A program made the position numbers and the translations under genes. Shown here piece by piece: positions 32,134-62,560 of a stretch of 64,000 bases of DNA (within the stretch, counting starts at the first letter, position 1; each line of letters opens with the position of its first letter). The notes under the pieces are model-generated. The model was not told where the DNA came from, searched no databases, and saw only the letters and a program-made list of their open reading frames with translations. The stretch comes from Fulvivirga maritima (GTDB taxonomy: Bacteria > Bacteroidota > Bacteroidia > Cytophagales > Cyclobacteriaceae): the NCBI RefSeq assembly GCF_021389955.1, contig NZ_CP089980.1, positions 3,839,001-3,903,000 on the forward strand, written 5' to 3'.

Positions 32134-32358
32134 TTTTTATGTTGCTTTTTTGATAGATTGCAAAAAAGTATGGGGCTTAAGGAGTAAAATGTAGACTGTA
32201 GATTCTCTTGTCAAGAGGCTTTTGCAAAACTTCAATTAAATGAATACATAGATGTCTCCTTTCGTCGACATGACCCTAGATTTTTTGAGTTGGTTTATGT
32301 TATGATAAATGAAAAAAGGTATTTATTGTTCAATAAGAGATTAGTCATAACTCCATAA
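32134..32358. repeat. 225-bp spacer unit of the repeat array, first copy
   Basis: Begins with TTTTTGATAGATTGCAAAAAAG, includes GAATACATAGATGTCTCC and TCGTCGACATGACC, and is nearly the same as 32926-33146 and 33262-33410. Palindrome plus spacer form a larger unit of about 340 bases. No gene is seen in it. Confidence 0.75.
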
Positions 32359-33261: not shown

Positions 33262-33526
33262 TTTTTTTGTTACTTTTTTGATCGATTGCAAAAAAAATAA
33301 AGGTACTAAAGCAATAAAATGTAGATTCTCTTATCAAGAGGCTTTTGCAAAACTTCAATTAAATGAATACATAGATGTCTCCTTTCGTCGACATGACCCC
33401 GGATTTTTAATTCATATCAATAGAAAGTTTCTGAGAAGATACCATTGACGAAGTAGTAATTCATAACCCATTTTGGTAGTTTGGCGTTCTTATTAATTCA
33501 TAATAAATATTACGCATTCGGAAGAA
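33262..33526. repeat. Truncated third spacer unit and leader of the Crp-like gene
   Basis: 33262-33410 repeats the spacer up to CGACATGACCCCGGATTTTT; the sequence then becomes unique and should hold the promoter of the regulator gene at 33527. No gene is seen. Confidence 0.6.
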
Positions 33527-45000: not shown

Positions 45001-45694
45001 TCTGCTGAGGGTATGGTTTGATGGTTTATAGTTTTGATCTCATAGTAAGCAGTAACGATGAAAGGTGAGGATGGCCTTGTAATCCACTCACCCTGGCTGT
45101 GAGTCTTCGAAATGCTCTTTTATAATCCGCTCCTTTAAATCTAAAGTCATTTCGAGATCTAGGATTTGTTTCAACCGCACCAAGAAGAATGACATATCAT
45201 TGGATTGAAAGGATGCATAAATCTATACTTTTAAGTTAGACATTTCAAATACCAGCCTACTTGTATTATCTAGTATTTATGTTCCATAGCTTAGGTTCCT
45301 TACTTTTTTGCAGTCGATCAAAAAAGTAACAAAAAACTCTTTCTTGCTGTGAGGTCTTCCGCTCACTGAAACATTTCATAGTAATGAACTGCCACTAAGG
45401 ACTTGAGAAAGGCCTATTTTTCAAACCTCTTTCACCTCACGACGGTACAGCAAGATGAAACCACAGCCGAGTCACACTGAGCCACGTCGAAGTGTAGACG
45501 ATCGGTACTGATCATGATTTAATTAGATCTCCATTGTTTTGATCTTTTCATATTACGTACTATTTGCTTATACTGCCATTGGTGCGAAAGGAGACATCTA
45601 TTTATTAGTTTAAGATTGACTTTTCAAACACCTGTGTCTTTTTAAGAACCAAGGGCACTATTGCATAGGGTAATCATGTAGCGTAATGAATCTT
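45001..45694. other. Non-coding stretch with scattered repeat fragments
   Basis: No gene seen. TTTTTTGCAGTCGATCAAAA at about 45303 and GCGAAAGGAGACATCTAT at about 45583 are inverted pieces of the spacer unit found at 32134-33410, so this looks like a decayed, inverted remnant of that array. Confidence 0.5.
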
Positions 45695-58438: not shown

Positions 58439-58455
58439 ACCAATGACGTAATACA

Positions 58456-59775
58456 CTAAATAGGTATTTGTTCAAGCTCATAACCTAATTCTTTAGCTGT
58501 TTTTACTAGCCATCTTTCCCTATGGAGCTGCATTTTTTCTTCATATGCTTTGATGCCCCGTTCTGTGTAATCAAGCCCTTTTACCATAAGCCGCCAGTAG
58601 AGTACGGCCAGTTTTCGGGCGGTAGCTTTAGTGGCTATGCCTGGACCTCTTTTGCTTTTCAATCTACGCCCAAAAGCTCCCAGTGCTATCTTTTTGCTTT
58701 CTATTAAACTTTGGGCTATTTGTCTGAATATTTGTCCTGCCTTTGGCCTGTACTTTCTGTTTCTGGTTTTATTTTTCTTGCCAGACTGGTGTTGACCTGG
58801 AGATAATCCTAGCCATGAAGTGAAATGTTTCTCACTGGGCCACTTACAAAGTTCCATGCCTATTTCAGAATACAATTGTAGCCAGGTATAATCGGTAATA
58901 CCCGGCAAACACGTAGCATCTTTGCCTGAAAAGATTTTCAGCAGGTGTCCTCCTAAGTGGTCTATATCAGGTTTATTATGTCTAACAGGTTTTCGATCTT
59001 TAACAGAATCTATTTCATTTTTGCTTTCCATATCTGAATCGTAGTTATTGAACCGCTTCATGACTTCATCCAGTTTTTGGTCACATGCCAGTATTTGTTG
59101 TTTATAAAATTTGTAACCACCGTATGCCTGTCCCAAAGCAAATAACCCTGACTCGGTATAATAGCCTGAAAGTGCCTTGATGACTTGAGAGGCTTTCTTT
59201 TCTCTAATACTGCTATGGCACAGGGATAAGAGCTTTTGGGCATCACGTTCCCCTGCCAGGATGGCTTCTATGATCGCCAGACCACTGGCGCCATGTATCT
59301 GACTGAGCACTTCTTTGAGCCGGATGTTCATCTCTATTAGCGCCTTTTGCATGTGGTTTACATGCATAGAGGCTGTTCTGAGATGATCTTCTCGCAACCG
59401 CTGGTAAGCACGAACTTCCTTCACTTGAGCATCGGGAACAAAACAGCGATTCAATAAGCCATGACTATGAAGTTGCTGAATCCATTGACAGTCCTTTACA
59501 TCAGTCTTTCGACCTGGTACTTGTCTTGTCTGGCGCCCATCTACTAACCAGACATCTAAACCTGCTGATTCTAGGATCTCATAAAGGATGATCCAGTAAA
59601 CGCCGGTGGCTTCCATGGCCACTGTCTCGATCCCCTCTGATAATAAATAACACGATGCCTCTTTAAAACTTTCAGTGAAAGTCTCAAAAACACGAACATC
59701 CTTGTTTTCCACGGATACGAAAATGTGCTTGGCTCCTATATCTATGCCTGCAGCATTTGCTCTCATCTTTTTCAT
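58456..59775 (-). CDS. IS110-family transposase, copy 1
   Basis: 439 residues. The N-terminal DEDD (RuvC-like) domain starts AAGIDIGAKHIFVSVEN with the first Asp, has AMEATGVYWIILYEIL with the Glu, and VDGRQTRQVPGRKTDVKDCQ with later Asp residues. The C-terminal Transposase_20 domain holds LPGITDYTWLQLYSEIG and the catalytic Ser in GLSPGQHQSGKKNKTRNR. This class recombines DNA with a bridge RNA guide. It differs from copy 2 at six residues (for instance Lys/Arg in TESFKEAS and Cys/Tyr in KDATCLPG). Both are intact. Confidence 0.95.
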   Translation of the reverse strand: MKKMRANAAGIDIGAKHIFVSVENKDVRVFETFTESFKEASCYLLSEGIETVAMEATGVYWIILYEILESAGLDVWLVDGRQTRQVPGRKTDVKDCQWIQQLHSHGLLNRCFVPDAQVKEVRAYQRLREDHLRTASMHVNHMQKALIEMNIRLKEVLSQIHGASGLAIIEAILAGERDAQKLLSLCHSSIREKKASQVIKALSGYYTESGLFALGQAYGGYKFYKQQILACDQKLDEVMKRFNNYDSDMESKNEIDSVKDRKPVRHNKPDIDHLGGHLLKIFSGKDATCLPGITDYTWLQLYSEIGMELCKWPSEKHFTSWLGLSPGQHQSGKKNKTRNRKYRPKAGQIFRQIAQSLIESKKIALGAFGRRLKSKRGPGIATKATARKLAVLYWRLMVKGLDYTERGIKAYEEKMQLHRERWLVKTAKELGYELEQIPI

Positions 59776-60006
59776 GACTAATTTTCTAAAAGTTAAACAA
59801 AGACCTGTAGGATGAAATATTGTACACGACAGACTACCAATCGGACATTCCTATAAAAACAAGGAAGTACCATACTTTGTGACTCCTTTCTATCCAACCA
59901 TGCTCAGGGACAGGCAAATTGCACTATGCCAGGTTCGGCTATATTGTACAGGCCACTTCTATTCTTAACGTCATTTCTTTTTGTGCGGTTGAAACAAATG
60001 TTAGGT
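59776..60006 (-). ncRNA. Candidate bridge RNA region of IS110 copy 1
   Basis: The 231 bases between element end and transposase start are conserved almost base for base in copy 2 (one A less in a run), although they code for nothing. In the IS110 group this long end encodes the bridge RNA. Possible stems: AAGGAGT with ACTTCCTT around a 13-base loop. TGTACAATAT occurs twice. CCCTGAGC in the middle resembles the target centre CCTGAGGC on the same strand. The exact RNA ends cannot be seen. Confidence 0.5.
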
Positions 60007-60008
60007 CT

Positions 60009-60992
60009 CAGGATGACTTTGGTTCTGTTGGTGGTACACATCTTAAGGTCAAGCTGAGGCACTCGAAGCTTAGACCGGTATTATGGAATACCATCTTTTT
60101 TGTTTTCAACTTTACTTTTGTTAATCAGTAATGGAAATTTGGGATTGTAGAAAGTCTATCCTTCGAGAGCCTCAGGCTGACTTTGGTTCTGTTATAGTAC
60201 ACACCTTGAGGTCAAGCTGAGGCATTTGAAGCTTCGGCCGGTATTATGGAATACCATCTTTTTTGTTTTCAACTTTACTTTTGTTAATCAGTAATGGAAA
60301 TTTGGGATTGTAGAAAGTCTATCCTTCGAGAGCCTCAGGCTGACTTTGTTTCTGTTATAGTACACGTCCAGAGGTCAAGCTGAGGCACTCGAAGCTTCGG
60401 CCGGTATTATGGAATATAATCATTTATGTTTTCAAATTAACTTTTGTTAATCCGCAATGGAAATAATGGGTTGGAAGAAAGTCTATCCTTCGAGAGCCTT
60501 AGGCTGACTTTGGTTGTGTTGGTAGTACACATCCTGAGGTCAAGCTGAGGCACTCGAAGCTTAGGTCGGTTTAATGGAATACCATCTTTTATGTTTTCAA
60601 GTATACTTTTTTAATCCGCAATTGAAATTATGGGATTGTAGAAAGTCCATCCTTCGAGAGTCTCAGGATTACTTTGGCTCTGTTATAGTACATATCCTGA
60701 GGTCAAGCTGAGGCTCTCGAAGCTTCGGCCGGTTTAATGGAATCCTATCTTTTATGTTTTCAACTTTACTTTTGTTAATCAGTAATGGAAATTATGAGAT
60801 TGTAGAAAGTCTATCCTTCGAGTGCCTCAGACTGACTTTGGTTTTGTTGATAGTACACACCCTGAGGTCAAGCTGAGGCACTCGAAGCTTAGGCCGGTAT
60901 TATGGAATCCCATCTTTAATGTTTTTAAATTTACTTTTGTTAATCAGCAAAAGCACTCACAGGTAATTAGAAAGTCTATCCTTCGAGAGCCT
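60009..60992. repeat. Tandem array of 164-bp units (five complete, two broken by IS110)
   Basis: Unit starts at 60151, 60314, 60478, 60642 and 60806, with a partial unit at 60971 that is interrupted by IS110 copy 2; 60009-60150 is the right part of the unit interrupted by copy 1. Each unit carries an ~85-base palindrome (CTTCGAGAGCCTCAGGCTGA with TCAAGCTGAGGCACTCGAAG) and a 79-base A/T-rich linker ending in ACTTTTGTTAATCAGTAATG. Units differ by scattered substitutions. There is no gene in it. Confidence 0.9.
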
Positions 60993-61008
60993 ACCAATGA
61001 CGTAATAA

Positions 61009-62328
61009 CTAAATAGGTATTTGTTCAAGCTCATAGCCTAATTCTTTAGCTGTTTTTACTAGCCATCTTTCTCTATGGAGCTGCATTTTTTCTTCATATG
61101 CTTTGATGCCCCGTTCTGTGTAATCAAGTCCTTTTACCATAAGCCGCCAGTAGAGTACGGCCAGTTTTCGGGCGGTAGCTTTAGTGGCTATGCCTGGACC
61201 TCTTTTGCTTTTCAATCTACGCCCAAAAGCTCCCAGTGCTATCTTTTTGCTTTCTATTAAACTTTGGGCTATTTGTCTGAATATTTGTCCTGCCTTTGGC
61301 CTGTACTTTCTGTTTCTGGTTTTATTTTTCTTGCCAGACTGGTGTTGACCTGGAGATAATCCTAGCCATGAAGTGAAGTGTTTCTCGCTGGGCCACTTAC
61401 AAAGTTCCATGCCTATTTCAGAATACAATTGTAGCCAGGTATAATCGGTAATACCCGGTAAATACGTAGCATCTTTGCCTGAAAAGATTTTGAGCAGGTG
61501 TCCTCCTAAGTGGTCTATATCAGGTTTATTATGTCTAACAGGTTTTCGATCTTTAACAGAATCTATTTCATTTTTGCTTTCCATATCTGAATCGTAGTTA
61601 TTGAACCGCTTCATGACTTCTTCCAGTTTTTGGTCACATGCCAGTATTTGTTGTTTATAAAATTTGTAACCACTGTATGCCTGTCCCAAAGCAAATAACC
61701 CTGACTCGGTATAATAGCCTGAAAGTGCCTTGATGACTTGAGAGGCTTTCTTTTCTCTAATACTGCTATGGCACAGGGATAAGAGCTTTTGGGCATCACG
61801 TTCCCCTGCCAGGATGGCTTCTATGATCGCCAGACCACTGGCGCCATGTATCTGACTGAGCACTTCTTTGAGTCGAATGTTCATCTCTATTAGTGACTTT
61901 TGCATATGATTTACATGCATAGAGGCTGTTCTCAGATGATCTTCTCTCAAGCGCTGGTAAGCACGAACTTCCTTCACTTGTGCATCGGGAACAAAACAGC
62001 GATTCAATAAACCATGACTATGGAGTTGCTGAATCCATTGACAGTCCTTTACATCAGTCTTTCGACCTGGTACTTGTCTTGTCTGGCGCCCATCTACTAA
62101 CCAGACATCCAAACCTGCTGATTCAAGAATCTCATAAAGAATAATCCAGTAAACACCCGTAGCTTCCATAGCCACTGTCTGGATCCCCTCTGATAATAAA
62201 TAGCACGATGCCTCTCGAAAACTTTCAGTGAAAGTCTCAAAAACACGAACATCCTTGTTTTCTACGGATACGAAAATGTGCTTGGCTCCTATATCTATGC
62301 CTGCAGCATTTGCTCTCATCTTTTTCAT
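61009..62328 (-). CDS. IS110-family transposase, copy 2
   Basis: 439 residues, identical to copy 1 except six positions: Arg for Lys in TESFREAS, Gln for Glu in SEGIQTVAM, Ser for Ala in QKSLIEM, Ser for Gly in AYSGYKF, Glu for Asp in KLEEVMKR, Tyr for Cys in KDATYLPG. None falls on the expected DEDD or Ser residues. It should be active. Its start at 62328 is preceded by the same leader as copy 1. Confidence 0.95.
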   Translation of the reverse strand: MKKMRANAAGIDIGAKHIFVSVENKDVRVFETFTESFREASCYLLSEGIQTVAMEATGVYWIILYEILESAGLDVWLVDGRQTRQVPGRKTDVKDCQWIQQLHSHGLLNRCFVPDAQVKEVRAYQRLREDHLRTASMHVNHMQKSLIEMNIRLKEVLSQIHGASGLAIIEAILAGERDAQKLLSLCHSSIREKKASQVIKALSGYYTESGLFALGQAYSGYKFYKQQILACDQKLEEVMKRFNNYDSDMESKNEIDSVKDRKPVRHNKPDIDHLGGHLLKIFSGKDATYLPGITDYTWLQLYSEIGMELCKWPSEKHFTSWLGLSPGQHQSGKKNKTRNRKYRPKAGQIFRQIAQSLIESKKIALGAFGRRLKSKRGPGIATKATARKLAVLYWRLMVKGLDYTERGIKAYEEKMQLHRERWLVKTAKELGYELEQIPI

Positions 62329-62558
62329 GACTAATTTTCTAAAAGTTAAACAAAGACCTGTAGGATGAAATATTGTACACGACAGACTACCAATCGGACA
62401 TTCCTATAAAACAAGGAAGTACCATACTTTGTGACTCCTTTCTATCCAACCATGCTCAGGGACAGGCAAATTGCACTATGCCAGGTTCGGCTATATTGTA
62501 CAGGCCACTTCTATTCTTAACGTCATTTCTTTTTGTGCGGTTGAAACAAATGTTAGGT
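62329..62558 (-). ncRNA. Candidate bridge RNA region of IS110 copy 2
   Basis: Counterpart of 59776-60006, with one A fewer in the run after CATTCCTATA. Conservation without coding capacity between two copies whose coding parts have diverged slightly supports a functional RNA. Confidence 0.5.
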
Positions 62559-62560
62559 CT

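What the first reader, a model, noticed from the sequence alone, without database searches (positions are those of the whole stretch)
58439..62560. Twin IS110 elements at the same repeat site, with defined ends, core and bridge-RNA leader
Two copies plus unbroken target units in the same window let the element ends be read directly: target GAGCCTCAGG is split with a shared CT, leaving a 17-base end behind and a 230-base end before the transposase. The long end is conserved without coding, as expected for a bridge RNA in the IS110 group. The target lies in a palindrome (AGCCTCAGGCT), and CCCTGAGC inside the leader resembles the target centre. This is a complete natural data set for guide and target of an undescribed Bacteroidota bridge recombinase.
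Basis: partly seen in the sequence, partly recalled or inferred. Interest (0 to 1): 0.72.

Follow-up and report, generated by a model that had tools for sequence, protein, structure and literature searches.

The report
RNA-guided jumping genes retargeting genomic repeats
Two copies of a bacterial jumping gene sit in the same DNA repeat because a short RNA encoded in the gene's own leader matches that repeat, and sister copies whose RNA letters changed have moved to a different repeat that matches the change.

Summary
Both window copies are complete IS110-family elements (1568 and 1566 bp) in units of one tandem repeat, with 17-nt right ends and ~230-nt leaders. The genome has 12 copies. Ten carry target guide CCCTGAG and sit at matching repeats. 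Two carry TGTCGAG; one of these sits in an exactly matching site of another repeat family (the other's left flank is rearranged). Across 20 homologous leaders with readable sites, the left target matches one leader segment only (gain 1.40; null 95% 0.48). The element's right end likewise matches a donor guide. The leader folds into two loops with strong compensatory changes (18 of 25 pairs). This is a bridge-RNA recombinase.

Three points differ from described systems. Both identified guides lie on the 3' side of their loops, the order reported for IS1111 elements, although this RNA lies upstream of the transposase as in IS110. Only the A of the 'core' is shared. A 50-bp miniature element with similar ends sits in the second repeat family, once inside this window.

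The right-target guide is only moderately supported and the right-donor guide is not identified. RNA expression and activity were not testable. New variant of a known kind.

The parts
58439..60006 (-). IS110-family element, copy 1 (1568 bp)
   Evidence: ends shared by 12 genomic copies; empty site restored by joining flanks
60993..62558 (-). IS110-family element, copy 2 (1566 bp)
58456..59775 (-). transposase (bridge recombinase), copy 1, 439 aa; D12, E55, D92, D95 and serine motif G323..P326....S331-G332 conserved
   Evidence: predicted fold matches IS621 and ISCro4
61009..62328 (-). transposase, copy 2, 439 aa
58437..58438 (.). insertion-site CT (AG on transposase strand), right junction of copy 1
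60007..60008 (.). insertion-site CT, left junction of copy 1
60991..60992 (.). insertion-site CT, right junction of copy 2
62559..62560 (.). insertion-site CT, left junction of copy 2
58439..58455 (-). right end (17 nt), copy 1: TGTATTACGTCATTGGT, left donor
59776..60006 (-). left end / leader (231 nt), copy 1
59810..59940 (-). predicted bridge RNA double-loop domain, copy 1
   Evidence: 91.9% of cells paired, 18/25 pairs with compensatory change
59896..59940 (-). target-binding loop (closing stem AGCC/GGTT, hairpin TAG(T)GC..GCCTG)
59903..59910 (-). left target guide TCCCTGAG, on the 3' side of the loop
   Evidence: matches left target across 20 families
59927..59935 (-). hypervariable 5' side of the loop AACCTGGCA, probable right target guide
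   Evidence: best register p=0.0044 of 18 tests; one base co-switches with the left guide; moderate
59810..59895 (-). donor-binding loop (closing stem GGATAGAAA/TTTCATCC, hairpin GG(T)AC..TGTCC)
59834..59841 (-). left donor guide ATTGGTAG, equal to the right end plus core
   Evidence: covaries with right end in 18 families
62455..62462 (-). left target guide TCCCTGAG, copy 2
60009..60990 (.). tandem ~164-bp repeat units with five intact insertion sites between the two copies
45156..45205 (+). 50-bp miniature element (left-end-like 38 nt plus right-end-like ATCATTGGAT) inside a second-type repeat unit
   Evidence: its removal gives a 190-bp gapless alignment to an empty unit

Best explanation
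The two copies are autonomous IS110-family bridge-RNA elements. The leader upstream of the transposase encodes a two-loop RNA. The target loop pairs with the left half of a palindromic intergenic repeat (guide UCCCUGAG against CCTGAG). The donor loop pairs with the element's own right end (AUUGGUAG). The recombinase joins a circular form of the element to the repeat at a shared A, giving a precise insertion in one orientation without target duplication. Changing a few letters of the guide sends the element to another repeat family. Shown here: element ends, empty sites, the conserved two-loop fold, left target and left donor guides, the guide switch with its target switch. Inferred: transcription of the RNA, circular intermediate, order of strand exchange. 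Moderately supported: right target guide on the 5' side of the same loop. Not identified: right donor guide.
For: Family; the predicted fold has IS621 and ISCro4 bridge recombinases as best PDB matches (E 1e-8 to 3e-7). Guide: in an unguided scan of the leader against the left target, the three strongest cells are three adjacent leader columns on one diagonal, matched in 19.7, 17 and 20 of 20 families; diagonal gain 1.40 against a null 95% of 0.48. Donor guide: gain 0.70 against 0.40. Fold: 91.9% of cells paired against 77.5 shuffled, covariation 0.488 against 0.220 +/- 0.016; closing stem of the donor loop -10.2 against -6.7 kcal/mol, 0 of 2000 permutations. Natural switch: two copies differ from the ten others consistently only at leader position 79 and guide positions 98-101 (CCCT to TGTC); one of the two sits in GTCATGTCGA, the rarer G variant (3 unoccupied exact copies against 6 C and 6 T) of a second repeat. 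A sister species has guide CCUCGAG and targets mostly ATCTCGAG.
Against: No RNA or activity data. Minimum-energy folding of the single sequence is no better than shuffles (z +0.43); the structure is visible only comparatively. The right target guide is not significant in the whole-leader search (P 0.18). Two homologues (L017, L056) match their left target imperfectly. Permutations do not correct for relatedness of families. The second copy with the changed guide (L006) has a rearranged left flank.
Confidence: 0.93

Rival explanations
1. Protein-only site recognition: the recombinase itself recognises the repeat, and the leader is conserved for control of transposase expression (as small RNAs control ISPpu9). 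The guide-like match would be coincidence.
For: A GTCA motif lies at a fixed distance from the site in nearly all targets and in the element's right end, which could be read by protein. Regulatory RNAs are known for ISPpu9 (PMC8450116, abstract).
Against: The leader segment tracks the left target across 20 families and switches with it inside one genome while the transposase stays nearly the same. A second leader segment tracks the right end.
Confidence: 0.03
2. The leader segment resembles the target because the element captured repeat DNA or by gene conversion with neighbouring repeats, not because it is a guide.
For: The outer ~38 nt of the left end do resemble a repeat family in the genome.
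Against: That resemblance stops at ATGAC, well before the guide. Guide and target match at the same loop position in distant homologues. The donor guide matches the element's own right end, not the repeat.
Confidence: 0.03
3. Guide order is the ordinary IS621-type order and I have assigned the loop sides wrongly; the left guides would then lie in linkers rather than on the 3' sides of loops. (This rival concerns the guide order only, not the bridge-RNA reading.)
For: Right target and right donor guides are weakly or not resolved.
Against: Stems flanking both loops show compensatory changes. Both left guides follow their hairpins and precede the 3' arm of the closing stem. In the IS621 control from E. 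coli the left guide precedes its hairpin.
Confidence: 0.15

Closest known systems
IS621 (IS110 group), bridge RNA in the left end (PMC11208160, PMC11208158)
   Same: DEDD recombinase with serine motif, RNA gene upstream of the transposase, two-loop RNA with target and donor guides, palindromic intergenic repeat as target, one invariant core T on one strand
   Different: IS621 left guides lie on the 5' sides of both loops and its core is CT on the transposase strand; here left guides lie on the 3' sides and the N-T core lies on the other strand. Transposase 439 aa against 326 aa
IS1111 group, seekRNA in the right end (PMC11187229)
   Same: Guide order: top-strand complement (probable here) precedes bottom-strand complement; subterminal inverted repeats (here ATGACGT / ACGTCAT, partly covarying)
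   Different: Here the RNA lies upstream of the transposase; the left inverted repeat lies over 30 nt from the end, not 7; the transposase is not close to IS4321
ISEc21 (IS110 family, PMC11187229)
   Same: Upstream RNA; a natural redirection is reported for its relative ISMch6 (three guide bases changed)
   Different: Guide order bottom then top; there the redirection is between elements at 72% protein identity, here within one genome between near-identical copies
IS110-family elements in REP sequences (PMC1525189; ISPpu9 in PMC8450116; abstracts)
   Same: Insertion in intergenic palindromic repeats
   Different: Here guides in many genera follow the local repeat family, and one genome holds two guide types

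Membership tests
IS110 family (DEDD recombinases) | DEDD RuvC-like domain plus C-terminal serine motif G--P----SG | tested here: met
IS110 family (DEDD recombinases) | Precise insertion, one orientation relative to target, no target duplication | tested here: met
   flanks join to the intact repeat unit
IS110 family (DEDD recombinases) | Circular intermediate with abutted ends | not testable with these tools
   needs PCR across the junction
IS110 group (as against IS1111) | Long non-coding region upstream of the transposase | tested here: met
   231 nt upstream, 17 nt downstream
IS110 group (as against IS1111) | Bottom-strand guide precedes top-strand guide in the RNA | tested here: not met
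   left target and left donor guides lie 3' of their hairpins; IS621 control shows the opposite
IS1111 group | Non-coding region downstream of the transposase | tested here: not met
IS1111 group | Subterminal inverted repeats 7 and 3 bp from the ends | tested here: not met
   ACGTCAT/ATGACGT present but over 30 nt into the left end and 5 nt into the right end
IS1111 group | Transposase of 330-350 aa grouping with IS1111 members | tested here: not met
   439 aa; groups with other long IS110 transposases (only one IS1111 reference, on a long branch)
Bridge-RNA systems | RNA with a target loop matching the insertion site | tested here: met
   left target guide; right guide moderate
Bridge-RNA systems | RNA with a donor loop matching both element ends | tested here: inconclusive
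   left donor guide met; right donor guide not found
Bridge-RNA systems | RNA transcribed and bound by the recombinase | not testable with these tools
   needs small-RNA sequencing of purified protein

The most novel reading that the evidence does not exclude
A clade of long-transposase IS110 elements in Bacteroidota (and, by inspection, in Caballeronia) carries its bridge RNA upstream of the transposase but with the guide polarity of IS1111 in both loops and an N-T core on the opposite strand. That would be a third arrangement of bridge recombinases, able to cross over with a single shared base and able to mobilise 50-bp elements made only of the two ends.
Probability: 0.55. Interest if true: 0.72.

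Novelty: new variant of a known kind. Interest (0 to 1): 0.62.

Why it matters
Bridge recombinases are of interest as programmable insertion tools, and the best-studied one (IS621) has a short protein (326 aa) and one guide order. This group offers natural pairs of guide and target that switch within a genome, a different guide order, a relaxed core, and a possible minimal donor of about 50 bp. The data make three open questions directly testable: how guides are rewritten in nature, what fixes guide polarity, and how much core identity recombination needs.

Tried and rejected
Rfam: no relevant RNA family matches, so no curated bridge-RNA model applies. Single-sequence folding: no support. RNAalifold on the whole leader gave only a partial fold; a named structure was tested instead. 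Right donor guide: AGGTCT in the tail equals the complement of core plus left end in this element, but it does not covary in the family, so it is not claimed. Right target guide: several registers tried, best p 0.0044 of 18 tests. Viral contigs and phages hold only distant relatives, 23-42% identical. PDB by sequence: none; found by fold instead. A promoter across the circle junction was looked for by eye; no clear Bacteroidota motif, not claimed. Placement against IS1111 rests on one reference with a long branch, so only 'not close' is claimed. Reading the first- and second-type sites as two arms of one fixed repeat was dropped: they often lie 60-115 bp apart, but the distance varies.

Full report
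Check of the observation. The window holds two near-identical IS110-family elements on the minus strand at 58439-60006 and 60993-62558. Each encodes a 439-aa transposase with both IS110 domains; copy 1 scores 214 bits with the NCBIfam IS110 model, cut-off 140. The right end after the stop codon is 17 nt and the leader is 231 or 230 nt. Joining the flanks of either copy restores the repeat unit, and five uninterrupted units lie between the copies.

All copies. The genome (6.39 Mb, one contig) has 12 copies with the same ends, ACCTAAC...CATTGGT. The right junction continues with AG in ten copies and AC in two. Ten copies have leader guide GTCCCTGAGC. Seven of these ten have a right flank AG|GC and three AG|CC; one of the seven (L007) is joined to an internal transposase site of a truncated second copy. 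Their left flanks are TCAT- or TCAG-CCTGAG, or TCACACTGAG in two. Two copies (L006, L010) have guide GTTGTCGAGC. L010 sits in GTCATGTCGA|CGAAAGG. L006 sits in a related unit with a rearranged left flank.

The switch. An alignment of the 12 elements shows 64 variable columns. Only five separate the two guide types consistently: one in the 5' side of the target loop and four adjacent ones in the guide (CCCT to TGTC). The transposase backgrounds do not follow the guide type: the CCCT guide occurs on both main backgrounds. So the target loop changes as a module (inference). The sister species G004 has guide CCUCGAG and targets mostly ATCTCGAG, so the second repeat type is probably the older target (inference). 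Unoccupied second-type sites with an exact pattern match are GTCATGTCGACG (3), GTCATCTCGACG (6) and GTCATTTCGACG (6); the L010 copy sits in the G variant its guide requires.

Guide mapping across homologues. Leaders and sites of 22 homologues, 57-100% identical in protein, were read. A scan of every leader column against every left-target position gave three adjacent leader columns on one diagonal as its strongest cells: 19.7, 17 and 20 matches of 20. As diagonals, left target against leader gained 1.40 (null 95% 0.48) and right end against leader 0.70 (null 0.40). For the right target the best diagonal in the whole leader fell on the 5' side of the target loop but was not significant (P 0.18); in a register test the best p was 0.0044 of 18 tests. 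The right donor guide was not found.

Structure. A two-loop structure named by hand was tested on 22 sequences: 91.9% of cells paired, 18 of 25 pairs with double changes, covariation 0.488 against 0.220 shuffled and at most 0.246 when slid. Both hairpins share one shape, with a bulged U. One pair of the donor hairpin is A-U in 12 and G-C in 10 sequences. Energy alone gives no support.

Guide order. Siddiquee et al. (PMC11187229) report that the complement of the top strand precedes that of the bottom strand in IS1111 RNAs, with the reverse in the IS110 member tested. Structural work on IS621 (PMC11208158) gives stem, left guide, stem loop, right guide for both loops. In E. coli IS621, read here as a control, the left guide precedes its hairpin. 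In this family both left guides follow their hairpins. The RNA therefore has IS1111-like guide order at an IS110-like place. By eye the 45-49% relatives share it (L075, L079, L080, L083; Caballeronia L107); this was not tested statistically. The transposases form a clade of long proteins away from IS621 and from the one IS1111 reference. The predicted model (mean pLDDT 75.5) has IS621 and ISCro4 as best solved matches.

Core. In eleven insertions whose right junction is not G (C, A or T; one tandem pair counted once), the left junction is G without exception. Only the A is shared by donor and target. Seen from the other strand this is an N-T core with invariant T, as reported for IS621 (PMC11208158). 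If both resolutions were equally likely the chance of eleven of eleven would be 1 in 2048, but biased mismatch repair could also explain it.

Repeats and miniature elements. Nearly all sites lie in repeats that begin with GTCA, and the right end also carries GTCA. A search with the left end found at least 16 short genomic stretches matching its outer ~40 nt without the rest of the element. In one family these are followed by AT and a right-end-like ATCATTGGAT. Removing the 50-bp insert from the window's example at 45156-45205 gives a 190-bp gapless alignment with an empty second-type repeat unit, and the best removal point is exactly the crossover. The simplest reading is a miniature derivative of only the two ends, moved in trans; the copies may have spread with the repeat rather than by separate insertions.

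Verdict. An IS110 bridge-RNA element, confidence 0.93. It is a new variant because of guide order, relaxed core and natural within-genome retargeting. Expression, circle formation and activity remain untested.

Noticed in passing
window 45146-45253 (L134, L128): Repeat unit with a 50-bp insert made of left-end-like and right-end-like sequence; about 12 similar units in the genome and one in the sister species G004. Possible miniature IS110 element.
   Followed up: partly
L070 (genome 4232641-4233957 and downstream): An intact copy is joined at its right end to an internal transposase site (ACAG|GCC) of a second, truncated copy; looks like a recombinase-made deletion at a pseudo-site.
   Followed up: partly
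L001 right end: The terminal 19 bp of the right end (TGTATTACGTCATTGGTAG) are duplicated.
   Followed up: no
L006 left flank: The left flank reads GTCATTGGTAG, as in the element's right end, instead of the expected GTCATGTCGAG; possibly the scar of a former tandem copy.
   Followed up: no
L002 and L006 (genome 4126744-4131801); L115, L116: First-type and second-type sites often lie 60-115 bp apart; the two guide types occupy two sites about 68 bp apart at one locus.
   Followed up: partly
window 32258-32274 and 33381-33397: Unoccupied second-type sites GTCATGTCGACGAAAGG that match the rarer guide.
   Followed up: no
L107 (Caballeronia plasmid): The second of two tandem IS110 copies appears to have inserted in the right end of the first, at CGCGGGAG, which matches its own guide-like UGCGGGAG.
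   Followed up: no
genome 1909707, 1935868, 3642113, 5383703: Four intact Y1-type transposase genes (the family that includes REP-associated transposases), candidates for spreading the repeats.
   Followed up: no
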